Source of the DNA: Phenylobacterium haematophilum
Lineage (GTDB): Bacteria > Pseudomonadota > Alphaproteobacteria > Caulobacterales > Caulobacteraceae
Direction: 5' to 3'
Length of the DNA: 64,000 nt
NCBI RefSeq assembly: GCF_014196295.1
Contig: NZ_JACIDK010000002.1
Span: forward strand, 186,001-250,000
Both the position numbers and the translations under genes were made by a program. Positions within the stretch are counted from its first letter, which is position 1; each line of letters opens with the position of its first letter. The notes below the pieces were generated by a model that had not been told where the DNA came from, ran no database searches, and saw nothing but the letters and a program-made list of their open reading frames with translations. Below, piece by piece: positions 2,564 through 31,495 of this stretch.

Positions 2564-4119
<1,556 letters not shown>

Positions 4120-4123
4120 CGCC

Positions 4124-5275
4124 ATGCTGCCCTACGGCCGCCAGACCATCGAGGAGGACGACATCGCCGCGGTGGCCCAGGCGCTGCGCGGCGACTTCCT
4201 GACCACCGGGCCGACGGTCGAGGCGTTCGAGACCGCCTTCGCCCAGAAGGTCGGCGCCCAGCACGCCGTGGCCTGTTCCAACGGCACGGCGGCGCTGCAC
4301 CTGGCGATGCTGGCGCTGGAGGTTCAGGAGGGCGAGGTGGTGATCGCCCCCTCGATCACCTTCCTGGCCACCGCCAACTGCGCGCGCTTCGTCGGCGCCG
4401 AGGTCGTGTTCGCCGACGTCGATCCGCAGACGGGACTGATGACCCCCGCGACCCTGGCCGAGGCTATGACCCGGCTGGAGGGACGGCGGCTGCGCGCGGT
4501 TCTGCCGGTGCATCTGCGCGGCGACACCGCCGAGCTGCCGGCGCTGGAGGCCCTGGCCAAGACCGCCGGCGCGGTGCTGGTCGAGGATGCGCCGCACGCC
4601 CTGGGCTCGACCCTGAAATTCGGCAATAGCGCTGAGCAGGTCGGCGACTGCGCGCACTCGGCGATGGCCACCTTCTCGTTCCACCCGGTCAAGACCATCG
4701 CCACCGGCGAAGGCGGCATGGTGACGACCAACGACTCGCGGCTGGCCGAACGCCTGCGCCGGCTGCGCAGCCACGGCATGATCCGGCCGGCCGGCGGCGA
4801 TCCGTGGTGGTACGAGATGCCGGAGATCGGCTTCAACTACCGGCTTCCCGACATCCTCTGCGCGCTGGGGATCTCGCAACTGGGCAAGCTGGACGCCTTC
4901 GCTGCGCGCCGGCGGATCCTGGCGGCCCGGTACGAGGCGGCGCTCAAGCCGCTCGCGCCACTGGTCGTCCAGGCGACGCGGCCCGACTGGAGCGATCCGG
5001 TCCTGCACCTGATGGTGGCGCTGATCGACTTCGAGGCGGTGGGCCGCTCGCGCCGCGAGGTAGTCGAAGCCTTGCGTGAGCGCGGCGTCGGCACCCAGGT
5101 CCACTATATCCCAGTCCACACCCAGCCCTATTACCGCGAGCGCTACGGCGAGCGGGAGCTGCCGGGCGCCAACGCCTGGTACGAGCGCTGCCTGTCGCTG
5201 CCGCTCTATCCGGGCATGGCCGACGAGGACGTCGACCGGGTGGCCGCAGCGCTGGCGGACGTGCTCGGGCTCTAA
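4124..5275 (+). CDS. pseC: UDP-4-amino-4,6-dideoxy-N-acetyl-beta-L-altrosamine transaminase, PseC/FlmB
   Basis: PLP-dependent aminotransferase acting directly on the PseB product. The 383-residue DegT/DnrJ/EryC1-fold protein shows GDFLTTGP near the N-terminus, the SNGTAALHLA cofactor phosphate loop, VEDAPHALGS (Asp155 bonding the pyridine nitrogen) and the PLP lysine at residue 190 in FSFHPVKTIATGEGG. LRSHGM and the GFNYRLPDILCALG stretch are also typical. It is cotranscribed with pseB (four-base gap). Note VEDAPHALG rather than the more usual VEDAAHALG, probably neutral. Confidence 0.93.
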   Translation: MLPYGRQTIEEDDIAAVAQALRGDFLTTGPTVEAFETAFAQKVGAQHAVACSNGTAALHLAMLALEVQEGEVVIAPSITFLATANCARFVGAEVVFADVDPQTGLMTPATLAEAMTRLEGRRLRAVLPVHLRGDTAELPALEALAKTAGAVLVEDAPHALGSTLKFGNSAEQVGDCAHSAMATFSFHPVKTIATGEGGMVTTNDSRLAERLRRLRSHGMIRPAGGDPWWYEMPEIGFNYRLPDILCALGISQLGKLDAFAARRRILAARYEAALKPLAPLVVQATRPDWSDPVLHLMVALIDFEAVGRSRREVVEALRERGVGTQVHYIPVHTQPYYRERYGERELPGANAWYERCLSLPLYPGMADEDVDRVAAALADVLGL

Positions 5276-22332: not shown

Positions 22333-22382
22333 AGAGCGTGATGACCGCCGTAACCGGCTGCCACTTCCAGCTATCACGCTCT
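22333..22382. repeat. Second palindromic element, AGAGCGTGAT...ATCACGCTCT
   Basis: Ten-base perfect inverted arms 30 bases apart lie just after the recQ terminator. The right arm supplies the stop codon (CTA on this strand) of the convergent methyltransferase. The inner sequence holds weaker GC pairing. It is probably the terminator of the leftward gene and one of a dispersed family. Confidence 0.65.
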
Positions 22383-23250
22383 AGGCCGGCTGCAGGAAGA
22401 CGTAGCGCTGGTAGGGGTCGGCCAGGGCCCAGTCCGAGCCGGCGATCTTCCAGTCCGGATAGTTGGCTGTGATGAAGTCCAGGGTCAACGAGGTGTCGCC
22501 GTAGGTGGCCTCGCCCTCGACGGTGTCGCGCTGGTGCGGCACGAAGGCGAAGCCGTCGCGGGCGTGCAGCGCCTTGTAGGCCTCGGCCTTGTCGGCGTAG
22601 TCCGGATTGACGTCCCAGTACTCGGGCGCGCGGATGGTGATGGCCAGCAGGCCGTCGTCGGCGATGTGGCGGCGCAGGGCGCCGAGCGCCGCGTCGGTGG
22701 CCGAGCGCGAGGTGTGGGTGAACACCGAGAAGGCGAAGGCGACGTCGATCGCCCGTTCCGGCGCCGGCAGCGACTTGGGCAGATAGTCCGACTGCGCCAG
22801 GTTGCCGATCAGGCCGGCCTCGCGGCAGAGGCCGACCGCGAAGTCCCAGGGGTCCATGGCCCAGATGCTGGCGGGGTCGGTGTAGTAGTACATCATCCGG
22901 GTGATGCGTCCGTAGCCGCAGCCGTAGTCGAGGACGCGCGCCTGCGAGAGCGAGCGGTTGCGGACGGCGGCGTAGTTGTAGGCCAGGGCGCGGACGAAGC
23001 TGACCGTCTCGCGCAGCAGGGTCAGGCCGGCGTTGCCGGTGAAGTTGCGCTGGGTCTCGTCGCTGGCCATGCGCGGCAGCAGGCGCGACAGGTGCGGTAG
23101 GTCCTCGCGCGGCAAGTCGATGATCAGCATCCCGAAGGCGTCGAGCGAAAGCGTTGCGCGCAGCTGGGCCAGCACCTGGTCCACGCCGGCCCCGGAGGCG
23201 GCGAGAGTTTCGGCGGCGGCGACCGCCTTGGCGTCGTCGGGAGGCAACAT
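22381..23250 (-). CDS. Class I SAM-dependent methyltransferase
   Basis: A 289-residue protein. The N-terminal 100 residues are helical and lack a recognisable domain. A Rossmann methyltransferase then begins with ARVLDYGCGYGRITRMM (motif I), followed by WAMDPWDFAVGL, FSVFTHTSRSATDAAL (motif IV region) and DDGLLAITIRAPEYW. The target is unknown. It diverges from the pseF-like gene 137 bases away and borders the nonulosonic-acid locus, which makes a sugar or glycoprotein substrate plausible. The ATG follows a GGGAGGC ribosome-binding site. Confidence 0.82.
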   Translation of the reverse strand: MLPPDDAKAVAAAETLAASGAGVDQVLAQLRATLSLDAFGMLIIDLPREDLPHLSRLLPRMASDETQRNFTGNAGLTLLRETVSFVRALAYNYAAVRNRSLSQARVLDYGCGYGRITRMMYYYTDPASIWAMDPWDFAVGLCREAGLIGNLAQSDYLPKSLPAPERAIDVAFAFSVFTHTSRSATDAALGALRRHIADDGLLAITIRAPEYWDVNPDYADKAEAYKALHARDGFAFVPHQRDTVEGEATYGDTSLTLDFITANYPDWKIAGSDWALADPYQRYVFLQPA

Positions 23251-23386
23251 GAAAGACTACCTGAGCGAAAGGGAAGCACGGCTCATAGCCTTGTCCGCCG
23301 CCCATTGGCTACCCGCCTGCGGGCCGCACGGTTAAGACCGGCGAAAGGCTCTGGCCCTAACGTCGCGGCAGTCGAGGGGAACGGGC

Positions 23387-24082
23387 ATGGCGGTCGCGAT
23401 CCTGCAGGCGCGGATGAGTTCGTCGCGGCTGCCGGGCAAGGTGATGAAGCCGCTGGCGGGACGGCCGATGGTCGAGCGCCAGATCGAGCGCCTGCGCCGC
23501 TGCGAGACCCTGACCCGGCTGGTCGTGGCGACCAGCAAGGACGCCAGCGACGACGTGCTGGCCAGCCTTCTCCTAAGCATCGGCGTCGAAGTCTATCGCG
23601 GTCCGCTGGCCGACGTGCTGGGGCGCTATGTCGGGGCGATCGAAGCGCTGGGCGTGACCGGTCAGGTCGTGCGGCTGACCGCCGACTGCCCGCTGGCCGA
23701 TCCGGGGGTGATCGACGACTGCGTGCGGCTGCAGACCAAGCTGGGCGTCGACTACTGTTCCAACGGCCGCAACCGCACCTATCCGCGCGGGCTGGACGTC
23801 GAGTCGTTCGACGCCGAGGACCTGCTGACCGCCGGGCGTGAGGCGACCGACCCCTACGACCGCGAGCACGTGACGCCGTTCCTCTATCGCTCTGGCGCGC
23901 CGTTCACCCAGGGCGAGCTGGTCCAGGCCCGCGACGAGAGCGCCCTGCGCTGGACCGTCGACACGCCGGAGGACTACGCCTTCGTCGAGAAGGTCTATGC
24001 CGCGCTCTATCCGACCAAGCCGGACTTCACGTCCGACGACATCCGGGCCCTGCCCTTTTCCCATTTCGAACCCGCCACCTAG
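23387..24082 (+). CDS. pseF: Cytidylyltransferase of the PseF/SpsF type
   Basis: Nucleotidyltransferase of 231 residues expected to activate a nonulosonic acid such as pseudaminic acid to its CMP form. The N-terminus AVAILQARMSSSRLPGKVM is the conserved nucleotide-binding loop with the RLPGK signature. RLTADCPLADP carries the metal-binding Asp. The late TVDTPEDYAFVEKVY motif is typical of COG1861. It is followed nine bases later by the Pse-associated methylase. The exact sugar is inferred from neighbours (pseI, pseB and pseC in this window). Confidence 0.8.
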   Translation: MAVAILQARMSSSRLPGKVMKPLAGRPMVERQIERLRRCETLTRLVVATSKDASDDVLASLLLSIGVEVYRGPLADVLGRYVGAIEALGVTGQVVRLTADCPLADPGVIDDCVRLQTKLGVDYCSNGRNRTYPRGLDVESFDAEDLLTAGREATDPYDREHVTPFLYRSGAPFTQGELVQARDESALRWTVDTPEDYAFVEKVYAALYPTKPDFTSDDIRALPFSHFEPAT

Positions 24083-24091
24083 GAGCCTCCC

Positions 24092-24724
24092 ATGACCGGC
24101 ACGCCGGCCGACCCGAAATCCGCCTGGGCGGGAGACTTCGGCGCCGAATACACGCAGCGCAATGTCGCCTCGGACGAGGCGCTACGGGCGCGCACCTTCA
24201 TGTGGGGCCGCTTCGCCGAAGCCTTCGCCGGCGACCCGCCGAAGACCATCCTGGAGGTCGGCTGCAATCTCGGCCTCAACCTGCGGGTCATGCCGCGGCT
24301 GCTGGGCGCCGAACTCTCGGCCATCGAGCCGAACGCCACGGCGCGGGCGCGGGTGCTGGCCGACGGCATCCTGCCGGCCGAACGGCTTTACGAGGGTTTC
24401 GGCGACAAGATCCCGCTGGCCGACGGGGCGGTGGAGATGGCGTTCACGACCGGGGTGCTGATCCATGTCGACCCGTCTCGGCTGCCGGCGACCATGGACG
24501 AGATCCACCGGGTGTCGTCGAAGTACGTGCTGTGCGCCGAGTACTTCTCGCCGCGGCCCGAGACGCTGAGCTATCGCGGCCACGAGGGCCTGCTGTTCAA
24601 GAACGACTTCGGCGGCCTCTACATGGACCGGTTCCCGGACCTGCAGCTGGTCGACTACGGGTTCTTCTGGAAGCGGGCGACGGGCCTGGACGACGCGACT
24701 TGGTGGCTGTTCCGGAAGGGTTAG
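24092..24724 (+). CDS. Pseudaminic acid biosynthesis-associated methylase
   Basis: A 210-residue SAM methyltransferase. The pattern LEVGCNLGLNLRVMPRLLGA (motif I), ELSAIEPNATA, FTTGVLIHVDPSRLPATMDE and YVLCAEYFSPRPETLSYRGH closely fits the small methylase family that travels with pseudaminic-acid genes. It starts with ATG after AGGAG and is nine bases from pseF, so the two are one operon. The methyl acceptor, on the sugar or on its acyl group, has not been established for the family as far as I know. Confidence 0.85.
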   Translation: MTGTPADPKSAWAGDFGAEYTQRNVASDEALRARTFMWGRFAEAFAGDPPKTILEVGCNLGLNLRVMPRLLGAELSAIEPNATARARVLADGILPAERLYEGFGDKIPLADGAVEMAFTTGVLIHVDPSRLPATMDEIHRVSSKYVLCAEYFSPRPETLSYRGHEGLLFKNDFGGLYMDRFPDLQLVDYGFFWKRATGLDDATWWLFRKG

Positions 24725-24738
24725 GTCCTACAGCAAGA

Positions 24739-24876
24739 TGTCATCCCGGTTTCGGCGCAGCCGAAGACCGGGACCCATTCGCGCCGTCCACTCAAAATTT
24801 GGCGCCCCCCCCCCGCCGCATCCTGCCCCATCTGGTGTTCATGGGTCCCGGTCTTGCTTCGCAAACCGGGATGACA
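24739..24876. repeat. Nested inverted repeat (TGTCATCCCGG family) between convergent genes
   Basis: Outer arms TGTCATCCCGGTTT (24739-24752) and AAACCGGGATGACA (24863-24876) and inner arms GACCGGGACCCAT (24766-24778) and ATGGGTCCCGGTC (24841-24853) are all perfect. Between them lies a ten-base run of C (24805-24814). The element fills the gap between convergent operons. It looks like a dispersed, possibly non-autonomous mobile repeat that also terminates transcription. Confidence 0.75.
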
Positions 24877-24902
24877 CGGTGGTGCGTGGATTGGCGCGCC
24901 GC

Positions 24903-25955
24903 CTACTCCACCATCGACCAGTCGAGCGGGGCGCCGCGGGGCAGGGCCCGGGCCGCCTTGCGGCCGAGGACCTCTGGCAAATGCTTGGGCGGCAGGCCGA
25001 AGCCCGGGCGGATCGAGCGGACGTTGGTCGCCGTGAGCGCCTCGCCGGCGGCGACGTCGGCGACCACGTAGAGCGATCGGCGGTGGTCGCGGCTGGAGGC
25101 CTCGGACGGGGCCTCGTCATAGCGGACCGAGCCGAGCGCCAGCCAGGCGTCGCGGCATTCGACGACCAGCCGCTCCAGCTCGGCCGGCTCCAGCGAGAAG
25201 TCGGAATCGACCCCGCCCTCGGCGCGGCTGAGGGTGAAGTGCTTTTCGATGAAGCAGGCGCCGAGGGCCACGGCCGCCACCGAGGCGGTGACGCCCATGG
25301 TGTGGTCCGAGAGGCCGGTGACGACCCCGTGCTGGGCGGCCAGGTGCGGCAGGGTCAGCAGGTTCATGTCCGACGGCGGGGTCGGATAGCCGCTGTTGCA
25401 GTGGAGCACGATGATCTCGCTGGCCCCCGCGCCGCGGGCGGCGGCCACCGCCTCGGCGATCTCGGCGGGCGAGGCCAGGCCCGTCGACATGATCAGCGGC
25501 TTGCCGGTGCGGGCGCAGAGCTCGATCAGCGGAATGTCGACCAGCTCGAACGAGGCGATCTTGTAGGCCGGGGCGCCGAGGCTCTCGAGCAACTCGACGG
25601 CGGTGGGGTCGAACGGTGAGGAGAAGACCGTGATGCCGATCTCGCGGGCGTGGGCGAACAGCCGTGCGTGCCAGTCCCAGGGGGTGTGGGCTTCCTCATA
25701 GAGGTCGTAGAGCCGCCGCCCGTCCCAGAGGCCGCCGTGCACGGTGAAGCCGGGGCCGTCGTGGTCGATGGTGATGGTGTCAGCGGTGTAAGTCTGCAGC
25801 TTGACCGCGTCGGCGCCAGCCGCCTTGGCCGCGTCGATCAGGGCCAGGGCGCGCTCGATCTCGCCGTTATGGTTCCCCGACATCTCGGCGACGATGTAGG
25901 GCGGATGGCCGGGGCCGATCTTGCGGCCGGCGATGGTGACGAGGGGTTGGCTCAC
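24903..25955 (-). CDS. pseI: Pseudaminic acid synthase (NeuB family)
   Basis: Condenses a 6-deoxy-2,4-diacetamido hexose with phosphoenolpyruvate to give pseudaminic acid. The 350-residue protein has the NeuB TIM barrel (PYIVAEMSGNHNGEIERAL, DAVKLQTYTADT, VFSSPFDPTAVELLE, KIASFELVD, GLSDHTMG, ACFIEKHFTL) and a C-terminal antifreeze-like SAF domain (RSLYVVADVAAGEALTATNV, RSIRPGFGLPPKHL). The KIASFELVD and HFTLSRAEGGVDSDFSLEP strings fit PseI better than NeuB sialate synthases. It starts with GTG overlapping the HAD gene's stop (GTGA). Last gene of a four-gene leftward operon. Confidence 0.92.
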   Translation of the reverse strand: MSQPLVTIAGRKIGPGHPPYIVAEMSGNHNGEIERALALIDAAKAAGADAVKLQTYTADTITIDHDGPGFTVHGGLWDGRRLYDLYEEAHTPWDWHARLFAHAREIGITVFSSPFDPTAVELLESLGAPAYKIASFELVDIPLIELCARTGKPLIMSTGLASPAEIAEAVAAARGAGASEIIVLHCNSGYPTPPSDMNLLTLPHLAAQHGVVTGLSDHTMGVTASVAAVALGACFIEKHFTLSRAEGGVDSDFSLEPAELERLVVECRDAWLALGSVRYDEAPSEASSRDHRRSLYVVADVAAGEALTATNVRSIRPGFGLPPKHLPEVLGRKAARALPRGAPLDWSMVE

Positions 25956-26638
25956 GCGCCGTCTCCAGGTTCGAGCCGCGCCAGCACCGGCGCGATCTCC
26001 ACGAAACTCGGCGCCTCGGCGTCGGGCGGGAAGCCGCCGTCGCCAAGGGCCGCAAACTTGCCGGTCCGCACCCGCACCGAGCGGCAGCCGACGGAGGCGG
26101 CGGCGGCCATGTCGTGGCCGGGATTGTCGCCGATCACCACGGCCTGGGCCGGGAAGGCGTCCATCCGGCGCAGGGCCTCAAGATAGCAGGCCGGGTCGGG
26201 CTTGGGCGCCTCGTGCTCCCAGCACAGCAGCACCTCGTCGACCAGGTCGGCGACGCCGAGCGCCTCGACCTTGCGCGACTGCATCAGGGCCAGGCCGTCG
26301 GTGACGACGGCCAGCCGATAGGACTTCGCGAGCGCGGCGAGGGTGTCGGCGACGCCGGGCCACAGGCTGATCGTCGGGCGGTGGTCGCGGTAGATCCCCA
26401 CCAGTTCGCCGACCAACCCCGGACTGGCCGGCAGTCCGGCCTGGGCGAGGACGACGTCGAAGATGCGGCCGCGACCGTGGGCGTCGAGCTCGGCCTCCAT
26501 GCCGGCGGCCAGCGCGGCGGCGTCGAGGCGCGGATGACGCTGGGCGAGCTCTTCGGCCACGGCGCGGAAGCCCGACAGCACGTAGGTGCGCTCGTCGTAG
26601 AGCGTGTCGTCGAGGTCGATGAGCAGGGCGCTGATCAC
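25952..26638 (-). CDS. HAD-superfamily phosphatase in the nonulosonate operon
   Basis: A 228-residue haloacid-dehalogenase-like hydrolase. Motif I is DLDDT (nucleophile Asp8, acid Asp10), then a helical cap, motif II VVTDG, the motif III lysine in EAPKPDP and motif IV VVIGDNPGHDMAAA. Overlaps at both ends (GTGA) tie it to the ATP-grasp gene and pseI. The standard pseudaminic route needs no phosphatase. Known parallels are the sialate/Kdn-9-phosphate phosphatases of other nonulosonate pathways, which also belong to this superfamily. Function here is unproven. Confidence 0.82.
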   Translation of the reverse strand: MISALLIDLDDTLYDERTYVLSGFRAVAEELAQRHPRLDAAALAAGMEAELDAHGRGRIFDVVLAQAGLPASPGLVGELVGIYRDHRPTISLWPGVADTLAALAKSYRLAVVTDGLALMQSRKVEALGVADLVDEVLLCWEHEAPKPDPACYLEALRRMDAFPAQAVVIGDNPGHDMAAAASVGCRSVRVRTGKFAALGDGGFPPDAEAPSFVEIAPVLARLEPGDGA

Positions 26639-27582
26639 AGGGCGGCCAGTTCGGCGTCGGTGACGATGCGGTCCTGGGAATAGCGCAGCATAGTCAGGCC
26701 GTAGGCGATCGCCCGCGGGCGGGCGGCCTCGACGTCCTGGCCGCGGGCCATCTGCAGGATGCGTTCTGGCGAGGCCAGGCCCGCCTGGATCGAGAGGTTC
26801 GAGGCGCCGCCGAAGCGCGGGTTGATCTCGATGAAGCGAGTCCCGGCGTCGTCGTGAAAAGCCTGGACAACGTTGTGGCCGACGAGACCGAGCGCGGCGC
26901 AGAGCTTCAGCGCCTGGTCGGTCAGGGCAGGGACGTCCTGCGTACGCGACTTGGTCGCCTCGCCGTCCTGAACCTGCAGCCGGCGGCGGGCCACGGCCTG
27001 CAGCGGCGCGCCGTCCAGGCTCATCAGCACGTCGACCGTGTACTCCGGTCCGTCGTCGAACGCCTGGACGAGCAGGGTCTCATCGGCCGGAAGATCGGTC
27101 GGATCGTCGATCCGGCGCGCGCCGGCGCCGCCGGCCCCGTCGACTGGACGGACAAAGACCGGAAAGGCGTCCGGGGTCTGGCCCGGCGCATAGGTGCGCG
27201 GCGTGCCCAGGCCAAGGTCGTGGCAGGCCTGGGTGAAGCGGCGTTTGTCGCGGCAGATCGCAAGCGCCTCAGGCGCGGGGACAAGCACCGCGACTCCGGC
27301 CTCGGCGAGGCGCGGGCGCAGGTGCGCCAGGGTCGCCAGTTCGCCGTCGCGGGTCGGGACGATGAGGCCGACGGCATGGCGGGCGCAGGCCTCGATGAGG
27401 GCGCCCGCGAACTGCGGAGCATCGCTGCGCGGCAGGATCAGCGCCTGGTCGGCGGCGAACAGGGCGGCGTTGTCGGACGCGATGTCGGCGGCCAGCACCC
27501 GCCCGCCCAGCGGATGGGCGGCGGCCTGGAAGGCCTGGACCAGCAAGACCTTGGCGGCGGCGCTGAGGATGAGGACGTTCAT
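26635..27582 (-). CDS. ATP-grasp ligase in the nonulosonate operon
   Basis: A 315-residue protein resembling a carbamoyl-phosphate-synthase-type ATP-grasp domain. A Rossmann-like pre-domain (MNVLILSAAAKVLLVQAF...VPTRDGELATLAH) precedes the ATP-binding part (FPVFVRPVDGAGGAGARRI, LLVQAFDDGPEYTVDVLM) and the metal-binding FIEINPRFGGASNLSIQAG. Such enzymes join a carboxylate to an amine or thiol through an acyl-phosphate. Nestled between a methyltransferase (21 bases upstream) and the HAD gene (4-base overlap), it may add an amino acid or similar group to the sugar. That is inference. Confidence 0.82.
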   Translation of the reverse strand: MNVLILSAAAKVLLVQAFQAAAHPLGGRVLAADIASDNAALFAADQALILPRSDAPQFAGALIEACARHAVGLIVPTRDGELATLAHLRPRLAEAGVAVLVPAPEALAICRDKRRFTQACHDLGLGTPRTYAPGQTPDAFPVFVRPVDGAGGAGARRIDDPTDLPADETLLVQAFDDGPEYTVDVLMSLDGAPLQAVARRRLQVQDGEATKSRTQDVPALTDQALKLCAALGLVGHNVVQAFHDDAGTRFIEINPRFGGASNLSIQAGLASPERILQMARGQDVEAARPRAIAYGLTMLRYSQDRIVTDAELAAL

Positions 27583-27603
27583 CGCCGCCCGCCGATCCCG
27601 CGC

Positions 27604-28476
27604 CTAGACCGGCCGGGCGTAGGCGGTCTGATTGCGGCCGACGCCGGCCCGCGCGCAGCCGCGACGGAACTCGACGACCGCTTCCAGCGACCGTTCGCGC
27701 CAGAGGCCCATCTCGAAGGCGACGCGGGTGAAGTGGCAGTTCCGCCCCTTCGAACGATCGCGCATGTAGCCGGTGTCCGGGTTGAGCAGGAAGATGTCGA
27801 TCGGGAACTCGCCCAGGTGTTCGACCACCTCCCAGCCGTGGGCGGCCAAGGCGCGCGGCAGGGTGTCGGTGTTGAAGTAGTTGAGGTGATCGGGCGCCGC
27901 GATCCAGAACTGCGGGTCGGCCAGACCGCGGCCGACGATCTGGTCCTGCAGCCAGGAGCCGTCGTTCGGGACGGCGACGCGCAGCAGGCCGCCCGGCGCG
28001 ACGATGGCGCGCAGCCGCTGCAGCAGGCCCATCGGGTCGATGACGTGTTCGAGGACATTGTTGCAGATCACCAGGTCGTAGACCTCGCCCTTGGCGATCT
28101 CCTCGTCGAGCAGGGCGAAGGCGTCGCCCAGCATCAGGTGCTCGGCCAGGTGCGGATGGAACTCGCGCACGCCGTCGTCGGTGAAGTCCAGGCCCTTGGC
28201 CTGCCAGCCGCGCTTCAGGAAATAGTCGAGTGTGAAGCCTTCGCCGACCCCGACCTCGAGCATGCGGCCGGGCGCGCGGCCCCAGACCAGCTCGGTCTCG
28301 GCCGGCTGCAGCAGTTTGTGCTCGAGTTCCTCGGCCGTGTAGCCGTGGGCGTAGGGCGTGCGCCCGTCGGTCGCGCCGAAATACTTGTCGCGGTAGTAGG
28401 CGGCGAGTTCGTCCGGCGTCGGGCGCGGTTCGATCTCGTAATAGCCCTCGGGCCGTTCGACCAGTTTGAGGCTCAA
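27604..28476 (-). CDS. Class I SAM-dependent methyltransferase heading the nonulosonate operon
   Basis: About 290 residues. Motif I is RMLEVGVGEGFTLDYFLKRG; then KGLDFTDDGVREFHPHLAEH, VICNNVLEHVIDPMGLLQRL and APGGLLRVAVPNDGSWLQ, the C-methyltransferase style seen in sugar-modifying clusters. The N-terminal ~50 residues (YYEIEPRPTPDELAAYYRDKYF) are typical of methyltransferases that follow a small Zn or helical leader. I prefer the TTG at 28476, with AGGAG seven bases upstream; the ATG at 28503 adds nine Arg/Ser-rich residues. First gene of the methyltransferase / ATP-grasp / HAD / pseI operon. Confidence 0.82.
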   Translation of the reverse strand: MSLKLVERPEGYYEIEPRPTPDELAAYYRDKYFGATDGRTPYAHGYTAEELEHKLLQPAETELVWGRAPGRMLEVGVGEGFTLDYFLKRGWQAKGLDFTDDGVREFHPHLAEHLMLGDAFALLDEEIAKGEVYDLVICNNVLEHVIDPMGLLQRLRAIVAPGGLLRVAVPNDGSWLQDQIVGRGLADPQFWIAAPDHLNYFNTDTLPRALAAHGWEVVEHLGEFPIDIFLLNPDTGYMRDRSKGRNCHFTRVAFEMGLWRERSLEAVVEFRRGCARAGVGRNQTAYARPV

Positions 28477-28543
28477 GGCAACGCTCCTACTTCGACGCGC
28501 CATCTGCCCCTGAGCGTAGTTAAGGCTCCGTCAATCGGGATGC

Positions 28544-28576: not shown

Positions 28577-30817
28577 TTAGAACCGGGTCTTCAGCTCGAC
28601 GCCGATGGTCCGCGGGTCGTTCACGAAGCCGGTCAGGTTGTTGAAGTCGATGCCGCCTTCCAGGCTTTCGTCGTCGGTGATGTTGCGGCCGAAGATCGCC
28701 GCGTCCCACTTGCCGTCGGCGGTGACGTAGCCGAGCCGCAGGCCGCCCTCGAGCAGCTTGTCGTCGGTGAATTCGACCGAGCGATAGAGGAAGAAGTTGA
28801 TCTTCGAGCGGTAGGCCCAGTCGGTGTAGGCGTAGAACTCGCCGTCGCGGAACGGGATCGCGTAGCGGGCGGTGATGTTGGCGATCCAGCGCGGGGCGTT
28901 GGGCAGGCTGTTGCCGTCGACCAGCACCGTGCCGGGGGCGCCGGCCGGGTCGAGCACGGTGCAGGGCGCGCCGCACGGCTGGATGGCCAGGTTCGGATCC
29001 TGGATCTCGGTGTGGCTGTACGAGAGGCCCGCGGTCAGCAGCAGGTGCTCGATGGGGTTGGCCTCGCCATTGAACTCGAAGCCGTAGCCCTCGGCGTGCT
29101 CGGCGTTGACCAGCCGGTTGAAGTTGGCGCCGCCGCCGACCGCGGTCAGCTGCATGTCGTCGACCTTGTAGTAGTAGACAGCCGCGTCGATGCGGGCGCG
29201 GCGGTCGAAGAGATCGGCCTTGAAGCCGGCCTCGTAGGACATCAGCGTCTCCGTGTCGGCGACCGAGATGGTCGAGCCGAACAGCAGCCGGCCCTGGATC
29301 GACGGGGCGCGATAGCCCTTGGCGATGCGGGCGTAGAGGTTGACGTCGTCGTTCACCGCATAGGTGGCGTTGAGGTTGAAGCTGACGTCGTCGCTCTCCG
29401 GATCGGCGGACAGGATCGGGGTCGGCGGCAGGCCGATCGGCGAGATCGTCTGCTGGGCGATGAACTCCTTCTTGTCGTTGGAGTAGCGGATGCCGCCCCC
29501 GACCGTCAGCTGGTCGGTCAGCTTGTAGTCGGCGTTGGCGAACAGCGCCCAGGCCTTGGTCTTCTGGTGCTGATAGGCGTAGCCGTTGCGGGTTCCGCCG
29601 GCCAGGGTGTCGAAGTTGATGCTGTCGATCTTCAGGTCTTCGAAGAAGTAGAAGGCGCCGACCGTATAGTTCACCCCGCCGTAGTCGCCGGCCAGGCGGA
29701 ACTCCTGGCTCCACTGGGCGTGATAGGGCACGCCGTCGGCGCTCTCGGCCGTGAACGGGATCAGGCCCGGGCCCGAAGGCGGCGCGAACACCGCGCCAAA
29801 GCCGCCGTCGACGTCGCCGCGCGAGTAGGCGGTCACGTGCTCGTAGGCGGTGATCGAGGTCAGGGTCGGCCCTTCGTCGCCGAAGTCGTAGGTCAGCTTC
29901 ACGTTGGCGCCCGAGCCTTCCATGGTCTGGCCGGTGCGCGGCTGGGCGTCCTGGTAGATCTTCTCGCGATCGAAGCCGGAGACGAAGTCATTGGTCCCCT
30001 GCTGGATGATGTTGGCGCGGAAGATCTGCGGCGAACCGTCGAGCTTGGTGTAGTGCAGGTTCAGCAGGGCGCTGAACGCCTCGGTCGGCGTGTAGAGCAG
30101 CTGGCCGCGGATGGCGCTCTGGTCATAGCCGCCGGTGACGTCGTCCTTGCCGGTGAAGCCGTTGTCGATCCAGTCGTCGCGGTGCATCCAGATGCCCGAC
30201 AGGCGGCCCGCCAGCACGCCGTCGATGATCGGGCCCGACACTGCGCCCTGCAGGTTAACCGTGCCGAAGGTGGCGTAGGAAGCCTGGGCGAAACCGCCGA
30301 CGCTCTGGGTCGGCTTGGCGCTGTCGAACTTCAGCACGCCGGCCGGGGTGTTGCGGCCGAACAGCGTGCCCTGCGGCCCGCGCAGGGCCTCGACCTGGTC
30401 GATGTCGAACAGCGGGAAGCTCTTCAGCACCGGGTTCTCCATCACCACCTCGTCGTAGACGAAGGAGACGGGCTGCGAGGCGTTGAAGTCGAAATCGGTG
30501 TTGCCGAGGCCGCGGATGTAGGGCCGCGGGAAGATCCGCGCGTAGCTGGATTCCAGCGTCACGTTCGGGATGCGGGCCGAGAACACCCGGATGTCGCCGC
30601 CGGACGACTGAATCACGTCCAGCTTCTCGGCCGAGATGGCGGTCACCGACACCGGGACGTCGTTGAGGTTCTCTGACCGCTTCTGGGCGGTGACGACGAC
30701 CTCGCCGAGCTCGGTGTCCTGGGCGAGGGCGTGGGCCGGCGCGAAGACCGCCAGGCCGGCGGCGGCGACCAGCGCAGCATGCGCGGCCCTGTTCAAGAAA
30801 CGCGTACGCACGGTCAT
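28577..30817 (-). CDS. TonB-dependent outer-membrane receptor
   Basis: About 746 residues from the ATG at 30817 after a signal peptide (HAALVAAAGLAVFAPAHALAQ). The TonB box region is ELGEVVVTAQKRSENLNDVPVSV, followed by a plug domain (PRPYIRGLGNTDFDFNASQP, VEALRGPQGTLFGRNTPAGVLKF) and a 22-strand barrel ending in Phe. The QKRSE/QxVPxSV type of plug is the large expanded group in Caulobacterales and Sphingomonadales, associated with uptake of plant-derived or complex organic compounds rather than siderophores. No ligand can be assigned. It is a single leftward gene with its own upstream gap. Confidence 0.9.
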   Translation of the reverse strand: MTVRTRFLNRAAHAALVAAAGLAVFAPAHALAQDTELGEVVVTAQKRSENLNDVPVSVTAISAEKLDVIQSSGGDIRVFSARIPNVTLESSYARIFPRPYIRGLGNTDFDFNASQPVSFVYDEVVMENPVLKSFPLFDIDQVEALRGPQGTLFGRNTPAGVLKFDSAKPTQSVGGFAQASYATFGTVNLQGAVSGPIIDGVLAGRLSGIWMHRDDWIDNGFTGKDDVTGGYDQSAIRGQLLYTPTEAFSALLNLHYTKLDGSPQIFRANIIQQGTNDFVSGFDREKIYQDAQPRTGQTMEGSGANVKLTYDFGDEGPTLTSITAYEHVTAYSRGDVDGGFGAVFAPPSGPGLIPFTAESADGVPYHAQWSQEFRLAGDYGGVNYTVGAFYFFEDLKIDSINFDTLAGGTRNGYAYQHQKTKAWALFANADYKLTDQLTVGGGIRYSNDKKEFIAQQTISPIGLPPTPILSADPESDDVSFNLNATYAVNDDVNLYARIAKGYRAPSIQGRLLFGSTISVADTETLMSYEAGFKADLFDRRARIDAAVYYYKVDDMQLTAVGGGANFNRLVNAEHAEGYGFEFNGEANPIEHLLLTAGLSYSHTEIQDPNLAIQPCGAPCTVLDPAGAPGTVLVDGNSLPNAPRWIANITARYAIPFRDGEFYAYTDWAYRSKINFFLYRSVEFTDDKLLEGGLRLGYVTADGKWDAAIFGRNITDDESLEGGIDFNNLTGFVNDPRTIGVELKTRF

Positions 30818-30950
30818 TGGCTGGATCCCCCAAACAGCGATTGTGCTGCGTTTTAGGGGGCTTAGGAGCGTAGCGAAAGTGCAACACAAGCGTCATCGAT
30901 ACGACACGCCGCCCCTGTGGCGCCGACGCCTCGCTATCAGCCTGCGGCGC

Positions 30951-31448
30951 CTAGATGCCGGTCGCCATGGCCGCGGCGGCCTGCCCGATCTTTTCCGGAC
31001 GGCGGCGCGGTGGGGTGTCGGCCGGCGCGCTCCATAGCGGGCGCAGCCCCTTGGGCAGGTTGGCGCGCACCTTGTCGATCTGGCCGGGGGCCAGATGGCG
31101 CGACAGCACGTGGCAGACGGCCTCGATCGCCCGGCGTGGATCGACGCTGTGGGCGTCGGTCAGCCAGTCGCCGACGTCGGCGACGAACTCGTCCAGACTG
31201 CTGCAGCGGTTCGGCTGCTTGGCCGGCTGGTACTGGTCGTAATAGACACCGCGGATCAACAGCGGCAGCTGCGAGCCGAGGTGCGCCGACAGGTCCACGG
31301 GCAGTCGATCGCGCAGTTTGTGCAGGACGACGCTGAGCACTTTCCAGGCGCCGTGCCGATCGACGTCCAGCTCCTCGGACAGCTCCTTGAGCCAGGCGTT
31401 GGTCGTGTGCAGGGTCCTGTCGAAAACGTCCAGGCCGTTGACGCTCAT
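30951..31448 (-). CDS. DUF2267 protein
   Basis: A 165-residue soluble protein starting MSVNGLDVFDRTLHTTNAWL at an ATG preceded by GGAGG. LSVVLHKLRDRLPVDLSAHLGSQLPLLIRGVYYDQY is the conserved core of the DUF2267 family. The family is known structurally as a helical bundle but has no assigned activity; it is frequent in stress-related loci. The C-terminal tail is Pro/Arg-rich. It lies downstream of the monooxygenase in the same orientation but separated by a hairpin. Confidence 0.85.
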   Translation of the reverse strand: MSVNGLDVFDRTLHTTNAWLKELSEELDVDRHGAWKVLSVVLHKLRDRLPVDLSAHLGSQLPLLIRGVYYDQYQPAKQPNRCSSLDEFVADVGDWLTDAHSVDPRRAIEAVCHVLSRHLAPGQIDKVRANLPKGLRPLWSAPADTPPRRRPEKIGQAAAAMATGI

Positions 31449-31459
31449 GGCAGCCTCCT

Positions 31460-31495
31460 TCGATGGCGGACGATCAGCCAACCGTCCGCCATCGA
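31460..31495 (-). terminator. 13-bp hairpin between the monooxygenase and the DUF2267 gene
   Basis: TCGATGGCGGACG and CGTCCGCCATCGA are perfect complements around a ten-base loop. The hairpin ends just upstream of the DUF2267 ribosome-binding site. It has no U-run, so it may be a terminator for the upstream gene or a stabilising leader structure. Confidence 0.6.

What the first reader, a model, noticed from the sequence alone, without database searches (positions are those of the whole stretch)
22381..28503. Nonulosonic-acid locus with unexpected HAD phosphatase, ATP-grasp ligase and three methyltransferases
pseF-like and Pse-methylase genes face a tightly coupled leftward operon (methyltransferase, ATP-grasp, HAD, pseI; the last three overlap by four bases). 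The known pseudaminic route (PseB, C, H, G, I, F) needs neither a phosphatase nor an ATP-grasp ligase, and PseG and PseH are missing here. The overlaps mean HAD and ATP-grasp are made together with PseI. They may build a modified sugar, for example one carrying an amino-acyl or carbamoyl-type group and methyl marks, on flagellin or another surface glycan. PseB and PseC are present elsewhere in the window.
Basis: partly seen in the sequence, partly recalled or inferred. Interest (0 to 1): 0.62.

Follow-up and report, generated by a model that had tools for sequence, protein, structure and literature searches.

The report
ATP-grasp/phosphatase module replaces PseH step
A Phenylobacterium sugar-making locus carries a ligase and a phosphatase that turn up, in several unrelated bacteria, in pathways lacking the usual acetyl-adding enzyme, which suggests these cells put a different, so far unknown chemical group on the acidic sugar that probably coats their flagella.

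Summary
The genes are as described: PseI, HAD and ATP-grasp overlap by 4 bp, with three methyltransferases and a cytidylyltransferase. Two corrections: the cytidylyltransferase is SpsF/KdsB-like, not PseF, and PseG is present elsewhere in the genome. PseB, PseC, PseG and PseI pass their cut-offs; PseH is not found anywhere in the genome.

The module is not random. ATP-grasp and HAD, usually with a methyltransferase, recur beside PseI in nine Phenylobacterium genomes, a related MAG, Sulfuricella, Solirubrobacter, a Polyangia, a delta-proteobacterium and one unnamed genus; a second unnamed genus has a metallophosphoesterase instead of the HAD. One genome fuses ATP-grasp and HAD. Among 31 PseI-bearing Phenylobacterium genomes, 18 have PseH, 6 a second GNAT ("PseH2"), 5 the cassette, 2 none, and none has two. 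In another genus one species has ATP-grasp/HAD where congeners have a GNAT.

Best reading: ATP-grasp forms the amide at the amine that PseH would acetylate, using a non-acetyl acid; the phosphatase strips a phosphate; a methyltransferase often finishes it. Replacement is inferred from distribution, partly in incomplete genomes; the acyl group and all chemistry are untested. A new variant of the known pseudaminic pathway.

The parts
26635..27582 (-). ATP-grasp ligase (PRK12767/PylC-like), proposed amide-forming enzyme in place of PseH
   Evidence: Pfam PF02655, PF15632, PF21360; AF2 pLDDT 93.7, closest solved structure 2pn1 Z 34.2, then biotin carboxylases and PylC Z about 27; K113, E252, N254, R256 in 14 of 14 HAD-linked members
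25952..26638 (-). HAD-IA phosphatase, partner of the ATP-grasp
   Evidence: HAD_2 78.6 bits; DDT, TDG, KP and D171/D176 positions invariant in 9 aligned cassette HADs, one of which starts inside motif I; fused to ATP-grasp in L113; a metallophosphoesterase sits in the operon of L160, where no HAD match was seen
24903..25955 (-). PseI, pseudaminic acid synthase
   Evidence: TIGR03586 497.6 bits, cut-off 340.25; only NeuB-family match in the genome
27604..28503 (-). SAM methyltransferase MTb, first gene of the cassette operon
   Evidence: Methyltransf_23 73 bits; next to ATP-grasp in L035, L101, L102, L105, L106, L108 and after PseI in L113, but no match in L110 and L145
24092..24724 (+). Pse-associated methylase
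   Evidence: TIGR03587 156.6 bits, cut-off 112.05
23387..24082 (+). SpsF/KdsB-like cytidylyltransferase, presumed CMP-nonulosonate synthetase (not PseF by model)
   Evidence: CTP_transf_3 101 bits; PseF model only 26.6 of 205.7; beside PseI in cassette and non-cassette relatives
22381..23250 (-). SAM methyltransferase MTa, accessory restricted to the closest relatives
   Evidence: Methyltransf_25; found in L035, L101, L102, not in L081, L105, L106
3061..4119 (+). PseB, first pathway step
   Evidence: TIGR03589 509.2 bits, cut-off 407.75
4124..5275 (+). PseC, aminotransferase that makes the amine to be acylated
   Evidence: TIGR03588 491.9 bits, cut-off 423.5
28577..30889 (-). TonB-dependent receptor, travels with the cassette in the closest relatives; not thought to act in the pathway
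   Evidence: Pfam Plug and TonB barrel; present in L035, L101, L102, absent at the same site of G004 (L081)

Best explanation
The ATP-grasp/HAD pair is an alternative third step of pseudaminic-acid synthesis. PseB and PseC make the UDP-4-amino sugar; instead of PseH acetylating the amine from acetyl-CoA, the ATP-grasp enzyme activates the carboxylate of another small acid with ATP and joins it to the amine as an amide. The HAD phosphatase removes a phosphate, most simply one carried by that acid or by the adduct, and MTb, where present, methylates the new substituent. PseG, PseI and the SpsF-like enzyme then complete a CMP-pseudaminic acid with a non-acetyl N-acyl group (expected at N-7), probably for flagellin. 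Shown: gene content, order, recurrent linkage, natural fusion, no PseH found. Inferred: that the module fills the PseH step, the acceptor amine, the order of phosphatase and ligase. Unknown: the acyl group, the glycan.
For: PseB, PseC, PseG, PseI over cut-off, PseH and PseF models not. In 31 PseI-bearing congeners: 18 PseH, 6 PseH2, 5 cassette, 2 neither, 0 with two; GNAT in 0 of 5 cassette versus 24 of 26 other genomes, Fisher p 1.2e-4, kinship not corrected. Of 71 genomes, 0 of 12 cassette genomes had PseH over cut-off or a full-length match at E<=1e-10, versus 15 (over cut-off) and 33 (either) of 59 others. In one other genus G114 and G383 carry a sub-cut-off PseH-like GNAT right after PseG and G372 a PseH2 next to PseI, whereas G467 has ATP-grasp/HAD in its pse operon, beside a flagellin gene. 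The cassette label needs 6 changes on the PseI tree, at least 5 forced. ATP-grasp and HAD are fused in L113. Where no PseI is near, HAD and ATP-grasp still overlap and abut a DegT aminotransferase in L146. Other PseI loci fill the slot differently: PseG-GNAT fusions (6 of 8 long PseG ORFs tested), a formyltransferase-like pair in G201.
Against: No biochemistry. The five cassette genomes among the 31 are related, and three of them are incomplete (G011 and G017 83%, G035 74%; G052 outside the set 73%), so some absences may be gaps; G000, G022, G467 and G122 are rated 100%, the eight named-record genomes have no rating. Over-cut-off PseH alone gives only p 0.058. G002 and G031 have PseI with no PseH, PseH2 or cassette, so lack of PseH has other causes too. 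The own genome has a full-length but weak GNAT match (29.7 bits). In Solirubrobacter (L110) a GNAT sits inside the module; it matches no NCBIfam model at 1e-5, and a GNAT with the same Pfam domains accompanies PseH2 in G014, but it weakens the argument there. C. crescentus lacking flmH and two paralogues did not phenocopy the other pathway mutants (PMC7591256), so an unrecognised acetyltransferase can do step 3. PseG-GNAT fusions score 29-35 bits, under the 1e-10 threshold, so divergent GNATs could be missed in distant cassette genomes. MTb is missing from L110 and L145.
Confidence: 0.55

Rival explanations
1. Add-on decoration: step 3 is done by an unrecognised acetyltransferase, and the ATP-grasp/HAD/MTb trio attaches a further group elsewhere on the finished or nearly finished pseudaminic acid (for example at O-8 or N-5).
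For: C. crescentus shows redundancy or promiscuity at step 3 (PMC7591256); C. jejuni has glutaminyl and di-O-methylglyceroyl derivatives of N-acylated Pse (PMC3068675, passages); Shewanella SfmE (ATP-grasp_4) mutants still swim and show a slightly smaller flagellin mass shift than the other sfm mutants (PMC3765264); a GNAT is present in the L110 module.
Against: Does not explain why none of the 16 cassette genomes has PseH over cut-off or a PseH2 better than 43.5 bits, true PseH2 members scoring 98 or more, nor the swap inside one genus.
Confidence: 0.26
2. The HAD is a nonulosonate-9-phosphate phosphatase: PseI here uses a 6-phosphosugar as in animal sialic acid or bacterial KDN synthesis.
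For: After 2hoq, seven of the next eight Foldseek matches of the HAD model are human or mouse N-acylneuraminate-9-phosphatase (HDHD4/NANP) chains.
Against: PseB, PseC, PseG and PseI all pass pseudaminic equivalog cut-offs, and pseudaminic acid has no 9-hydroxyl (recalled chemistry); the ATP-grasp would be unexplained; identity to these phosphatases is only 20-21%.
Confidence: 0.05
3. The amine is acylated with an ordinary amino acid by the ATP-grasp, and the HAD serves only to make that amino acid or to recycle a nucleotide, not to dephosphorylate the adduct.
For: A methylated glutamyl legionaminic acid (Leg5GluNMe7Ac) decorates Clostridium botulinum flagella (stated in PMC13317340, passage); Leg5Ac7AcAla in Vibrio vulnificus (stated in PMC7371886, passage); ATP-grasp plus methyltransferase would suit such a group; PylC is among the near structural relatives.
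Against: HAD overlaps the ATP-grasp gene and is fused to it in L113, more than a remote supply role would need.
Confidence: 0.11
4. Chance neighbourhood: ATP-grasp and HAD have nothing to do with nonulosonic acids.
For: Both families are large; close relatives such as G004 have the same locus without them; most opened ATP-grasp relatives in the phylum scan are not beside PseI (18 of 20).
Against: Same gene set beside PseI in several phyla, with overlaps and a fusion.
Confidence: 0.03

Closest known systems
Canonical pseudaminic acid pathway PseB-C-H-G-I-F (Campylobacter, Helicobacter) and the Caulobacter Flm route (FlmA, FlmB, FlmH, FlmD, NeuB, FlmC)
   Same: PseB, PseC, PseG and PseI equivalogs; scattered genes; a cytidylyltransferase unlike PseF, as reported for FlmC (PMC7591256, passages; FlmC itself was not compared with the window's protein)
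   Different: No PseH/FlmH found; ATP-grasp, HAD and a methyltransferase overlap or adjoin PseI
Shewanella oneidensis sfmABCDE flagellin modification (PMC3765264, passages)
   Same: ATP-grasp and methyltransferase genes in an operon with a NeuB-type synthase, making a nonulosonic acid with an extra, partly methylated 236-Da group
   Different: ATP-grasp_4 rather than ATP-grasp_3/PylC-like; TPP enzyme and reductase, no HAD among the five genes; SfmA is 31% identical to PseI in its N-terminal domain according to that paper
Clostridium acetobutylicum CA_C2186-2199 cluster (PMC4000134, passages)
   Same: An ATP-grasp aminoacyl ligase, SpsE and SpsF in one surface-sugar cluster
   Different: No HAD in the table rows I saw (the passage was cut); an aminosugar N-acetyltransferase and acyl carrier protein are present; the role is a gene-neighbourhood prediction
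Campylobacter jejuni di-O-methylglyceroyl pseudaminic acid (PMC3068675, passages)
   Same: Methylated hydroxy-acid substituent on flagellar pseudaminic acid
   Different: Depends on Cj1295, a different gene; no ATP-grasp mentioned in the passages I read

Membership tests
Pseudaminic acid biosynthesis pathway | PseB, PseC, PseG, PseI equivalogs | tested here: met
   All four above NCBIfam cut-offs
Pseudaminic acid biosynthesis pathway | PseH acetyltransferase | tested here: not met
   Best match in own genome 51.8 bits, partial, cut-off 93.1; no PseH2 at E<=1e-8
Pseudaminic acid biosynthesis pathway | PseF-type CMP-Pse synthetase | tested here: not met
   26.6 bits vs 205.7; an SpsF/KdsB-like protein stands in
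Pseudaminic acid biosynthesis pathway | Product is a 5,7-diamido tetradeoxy nonulosonate | not testable with these tools
   Needs mass spectrometry or NMR
ATP-grasp carboxylate-amine ligases (PRK12767/PylC-like) | ATP-grasp fold and ATP/Mg residues | tested here: met
   Pfam above cut-off; model close to 2pn1 and PylC; K113, E252, N254, R256 all 14 of 14 in HAD-linked members; the PRK12767 NCBIfam models themselves are not reached (225.6 vs 390)
ATP-grasp carboxylate-amine ligases (PRK12767/PylC-like) | Amide formation activity | not testable with these tools
   No assay; for 2pn1 I saw only its title
HAD-IA phosphatases | DxD nucleophile pair and other HAD motifs | tested here: met
   IDLDDTLY, TDG, K146-P, D171/D176 conserved in the cassette HADs
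HAD-IA phosphatases, TIGR02253 (CTE7) subfamily | Score over curated cut-off | tested here: not met
   104 bits vs 169.75
N-acylneuraminate-9-phosphatase (NANP) | Fold and substrate | tested here: inconclusive
   Among the best Foldseek matches, 20-21% identity; substrate untested
Shewanella Sfm system | TPP enzyme and PtmA-like reductase with NeuB homologue | tested here: not met
   None among the seven genes of the finding; rest of the genome not tested for them

The most novel reading that the evidence does not exclude
The module is a 'ligate a phosphorylated acid, then dephosphorylate' route of sugar N-acylation: the ATP-grasp couples a phosphorylated metabolic acid (for example 3-phosphoglycerate) to the pathway amine, the HAD (or a metallophosphoesterase) then trims the phosphate, and the methyltransferase caps the freed hydroxyl, giving an N-(O-methyl)glyceroyl-type pseudaminic acid by a route unrelated to the Campylobacter one; and step 3 of nonulosonate synthesis is a freely exchanged slot (PseH, PseH2, PseG-GNAT fusions, formyltransferases, ATP-grasp) that sets the N-acyl chemistry of flagella.
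Probability: 0.2. Interest if true: 0.75.

Novelty: new variant of a known kind. Interest (0 to 1): 0.6.

Why it matters
N-acyl substituents of nonulosonic acids differ between bacteria, and the enzyme for the third step has been left open even in Caulobacter crescentus, where a triple mutant of flmH and two paralogues did not phenocopy loss of the other pathway genes (PMC7591256, passages). If the ATP-grasp/phosphatase pair fills this step, it gives a genetic handle on new nonulosonic acids in environmental bacteria from several phyla, a way to predict non-acetyl variants from genomes, and enzymes for making them in vitro.

Tried and rejected
Rejected: that PseG is missing; that the gene at 23387 is PseF; chance linkage; NANP-type 9-phosphatase.

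Led nowhere: literature searches for Treponema flagellin glycans and N-acyl pseudaminic variants gave nothing on a ligase; the PseI tree could not order gain and loss of the cassette (long branches meet); five opened ATP-grasp relatives (L156-L159, L163) had almost no pathway matches nearby. Of the 26 non-cassette PseI genomes without a full-length PseH match, five (G165, G239, G340, G428, G448) were not opened; 20 were opened and G372, and in the 20 I examined only selected ORFs. Residue comparison shows the HAD-linked ATP-grasps differ from others (E208 13 of 14 versus 0 of 18), but relatedness is not corrected and no substrate follows from it. That I know no paper on an ATP-grasp replacing PseH rests on the listings of searches in the open-access library; none of them used a phosphatase or HAD term, so novelty of the phosphatase pairing was not searched for.

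Full report
WHAT IS THERE. The seven genes sit at the stated coordinates. PseI (24903-25955), HAD (25952-26638) and ATP-grasp (26635-27582) overlap by four bases each, GTGA both times; MTb (27604-28503) lies 21 bases upstream of the ATP-grasp. Facing them are a CTP_transf_3 cytidylyltransferase and the Pse-associated methylase TIGR03587, and beyond these a third methyltransferase, MTa. PseB and PseC at 3061-5275 pass their cut-offs.

THE WHOLE GENOME. The window lies in a 4.43-Mb, 21-contig genome rated 100% complete. Its genus is Phenylobacterium: G011, reported as the same genus, has a contig of 4,809,436 bases, the same length as a contig of Phenylobacterium sp. J367. There is one NeuB-family match, the window's PseI, one PseG over cut-off on contig C4, four flagellin genes over cut-off, no PseF over cut-off and no PseH over cut-off. 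The best of the four PseH matches, 51.8 bits over model positions 60-155, reads to me as a generic GNAT (ORF); one match is full-length but weak (29.7 bits). So the pathway is present up to the amine and from the hydrolase on; the acetylation step is what is not found.

THE MODULE RECURS. Among 100 relatives, 63 had some ATP-grasp match; matches of 35% identity or more over most of the protein were in G000, G022, G035, G017 (cut by a contig end), G011 (frame-broken) and G052, all of this genus. A scan of GTDB genomes with an alignment of five of them gave 14 loci. In 10 of these 14 the ATP-grasp has HAD and PseI matches nearby, one of them (J367) in broken frames: six Phenylobacterium or unclassified Pseudomonadota records (L101, L102, L105, L106, L107, L109), Sulfuricella (L108), Solirubrobacter soli (L110), a Polyangia MAG (L111) and a delta-proteobacterial MAG (L113); two more (L103, L104, the records of G035 and G017) end before most of PseI, one (L112) ends inside the ATP-grasp, and one (L114) shows nothing. 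In 398 Pseudomonadota genomes, 44 had an ATP-grasp match at E<=1e-20, the window's genome among them; I opened the best place of 20 of these 44. Two had PseI beside it (G467, G122), and two more had a HAD without PseI (G358, and G168 on a 3.4-kb contig); 16 had neither. In all I count 16 cassette genomes: G000, G011, G017, G022, G035, G052, the genomes G488-G495 of L101, L102, L105, L106, L108, L110, L111, L113, and G467 and G122. A methyltransferase of the MTb kind is not matched in L110 and L145 (G467), nor on the short contigs L109 and L111.

MODULE LOGIC FROM FUSIONS AND SWAPS. In L113 ATP-grasp and HAD are one 562-residue protein, and in L110 an epimerase-type SDR is fused to the ATP-grasp. 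In G122 the operon order is PseG, SDR, MTb, calcineurin-like phosphoesterase, ATP-grasp, PseI, with no HAD match: an unrelated phosphatase type sits where the HAD would be. In G358, without PseI at that place, HAD and ATP-grasp overlap and abut a PseC-like (DegT) ORF; in 12 of the 20 opened phylum loci such an ORF lies within 3 kb of the ATP-grasp, in 5 of 20 within 100 bases (counted). This points to the amine made by the aminotransferase as the acceptor. It is context, not proof: polysaccharide loci are rich in such genes and no background rate was measured.

THE STEP-3 SLOT. Of 36 same-genus genomes, 31 have a PseI match of at least 60% identity. In these 31: PseH over cut-off in 18; a second GNAT family, PseH2, in 6 (G004, G006, G012, G014, G027, G028); the cassette in 5 (G000, G011, G017, G022, G035); neither in 2 (G002, G031); two of them together in 0. 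PseH2 lies between SpsF and PseI in G027 and beside SpsF in G012, which is why I read it as a PseH equivalent; it scores 42 bits with the PseH model in G004. Fisher tests, uncorrected for kinship: GNAT 0 of 5 versus 24 of 26, p 1.2e-4; PseH alone 0 of 5 versus 18 of 26, p 0.0076. Three of the five cassette genomes are only 74-83% complete, so their absences are weaker; G000 and G022 are rated 100%. G052, a sixth cassette Phenylobacterium outside that set (73% complete), has no PseH match at 1e-10 and no PseH2.

BEYOND THE GENUS. PseI is over cut-off in 62 of 398 Pseudomonadota genomes. I searched PseH in 71 genomes: these 62 plus nine others. Of 12 cassette genomes in it (G000, G052, G467, G122 and G488-G495) none has a match over cut-off or a full-length one at E<=1e-10; of the 59 others 15 are over cut-off and 18 more have a full-length match (my definition: from model position 10 or below to 135 or above), some of which may be unrelated GNATs. 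Fisher p is 0.058 for over-cut-off and 2.4e-4 for full-length. With the PseH2 model, 10 of 55 genomes score 98 bits or more; the 16 cassette genomes, all among the 55, reach at most 43.5 bits. PseG is a stand-alone protein of 351-374 residues where I saw it in cassette genomes (G000, L108, L113, whose PseG starts at the contig edge, L145, L160), so no GNAT is hidden in a PseG fusion in those five. Of the 26 remaining PseI genomes I opened 21: 6 of 8 long PseG proteins tested carry a GNAT domain, G372 and G115 have a PseH2-like GNAT next to PseI, G201 has two formyltransferase-like proteins between PseG and PseI, and G183 an ATP-grasp with an L-amino-acid-ligase domain about 7 kb from PseI. The step appears to be filled by exchangeable enzymes; for the other opened loci I did not establish what fills it.

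ONE GENUS, THREE SOLUTIONS. G114, G383, G372 and G467 belong to one genus. G114 has PseB, PseC, a cytidylyltransferase-like ORF, PseI, PseG and a GNAT in a row, and G383 the same with a gap before PseI; these GNATs are below the PseH cut-off (70.4 and 64.4 bits). G372 has a cytidylyltransferase-like ORF, PseG, PseI and PseH2; G467 has PseF, PseG, PseI, LicD-like, ATP-grasp, HAD, PseB, PseC beside a flagellin gene, with no PseH match at 1e-10 and no PseH2 at 1e-8. G467 and G372 are sisters on the PseI tree with 100/100 support. On that tree of 46 PseI proteins the cassette label needs six changes, at least five forced by well-supported branches; I labelled G114, G383 and G440 as PseH although their GNATs are under the cut-off, and several cassette rows have long branches.

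AN EMPTY SITE. G004, whose PseI is 87% identical, has RecQ-SpsF-PseMe-PseI-monooxygenase at the same site, without MTa, HAD, ATP-grasp, MTb, TonB receptor and the 176-residue ORF, and it has PseH2 elsewhere. The window, G022, L101 and L102 share the filled arrangement. Which state is older was not settled.

PROTEINS. The ATP-grasp model (pLDDT 93.7) matches 2pn1 best (Z 34.2, rmsd 1.9 over 280), then biotin carboxylases and PylC at Z about 27; 2pn1 is titled a carbamoyl-phosphate synthase subunit and I saw no tested function for it. HAD-linked ATP-grasps share residues that other relatives lack (E208 13 of 14 versus 0 of 18), so they may be a substrate-specific subfamily, or simply closer kin. 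The HAD model (pLDDT 93.6) matches 2hoq and then mostly animal N-acylneuraminate-9-phosphatases; its DxDDT motif is of the phosphatase rather than dehalogenase kind (recalled distinction).

MECHANISM AND LIMITS. ATP-grasp ligases join a carboxylate to an amine through an acyl phosphate (established knowledge of the family, recalled). With an aminotransferase product as the obvious amine and PseH not found, amide formation at that amine is the simplest reading. A phosphatase bound so closely to the ligase suggests a phosphorylated substrate or product; glycerate is one candidate because di-O-methylglyceroyl pseudaminic acid exists in Campylobacter jejuni (PMC3068675, passages), and amino acids are another because Leg5GluNMe7Ac (PMC13317340, passage) and Leg5Ac7AcAla (PMC7371886, passage) are reported. 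None of this was tested. The flagellin target is inferred from G467's gene order and from Caulobacter (PMC7591256, passages), not from this genome.

PRIOR ART. ATP-grasp genes in nonulosonate or flagellin clusters are known: Shewanella sfmE (PMC3765264, passages), Clostridium acetobutylicum CA_C2189 (PMC4000134, passages), C. difficile CDR20291_0245 in a different flagellin modification (PMC5207246, passages). In the listings of searches I saw no report of an ATP-grasp replacing PseH; the pairing with a phosphatase was not searched for by name. Hence a new variant of a known pathway.

Noticed in passing
L107 / L038 (Phenylobacterium sp. J367): MTb, ATP-grasp and PseI ORFs are broken by frame changes in this canu assembly; probably sequencing indels, but real decay is not excluded.
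   Followed up: no
L108:10652-11511 (Sulfuricella): A nucleotidyltransferase-like and a HEPN-like ORF sit between HAD and PseI, looking like a MNT/HEPN toxin-antitoxin pair inside a sugar operon (reading from the sequence, no family search).
   Followed up: no
L146:9167-12136 (G358): HAD, ATP-grasp and a DegT aminotransferase-like ORF overlap in a non-PseI polysaccharide locus, suggesting the pair also acylates other amino sugars.
   Followed up: partly
L186, L191, L194, L196, L199, L204: PseG proteins with a C-terminal GNAT domain next to PseI: apparent PseG-PseH fusions, scoring well below the PseH cut-off in the two of six tested (L186, L199).
   Followed up: partly
L185:7049-9119 (G201): Two formyltransferase-like proteins and an LmbE-like ORF (my reading of the sequence) between PseG and PseI, with no PseH match at E<=1e-10: possibly a formylated or re-acylated variant.
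   Followed up: partly
L160:14207-16246 (G122): A cytidylyltransferase-like region fused to a glutamate-1-semialdehyde aminomutase-like domain in the pse operon.
   Followed up: no
window 28577-31481: A TonB receptor and a 176-residue ORF travel with the cassette in four genomes (window, L035, L101, L102) and are absent at the empty site of G004.
   Followed up: partly
L169:5436-6095 and L110:7521-8042: A further GNAT type (Acetyltransf_4) occurs next to PseH2 in G014 and inside the Solirubrobacter ATP-grasp module; its role is unclear.
   Followed up: partly
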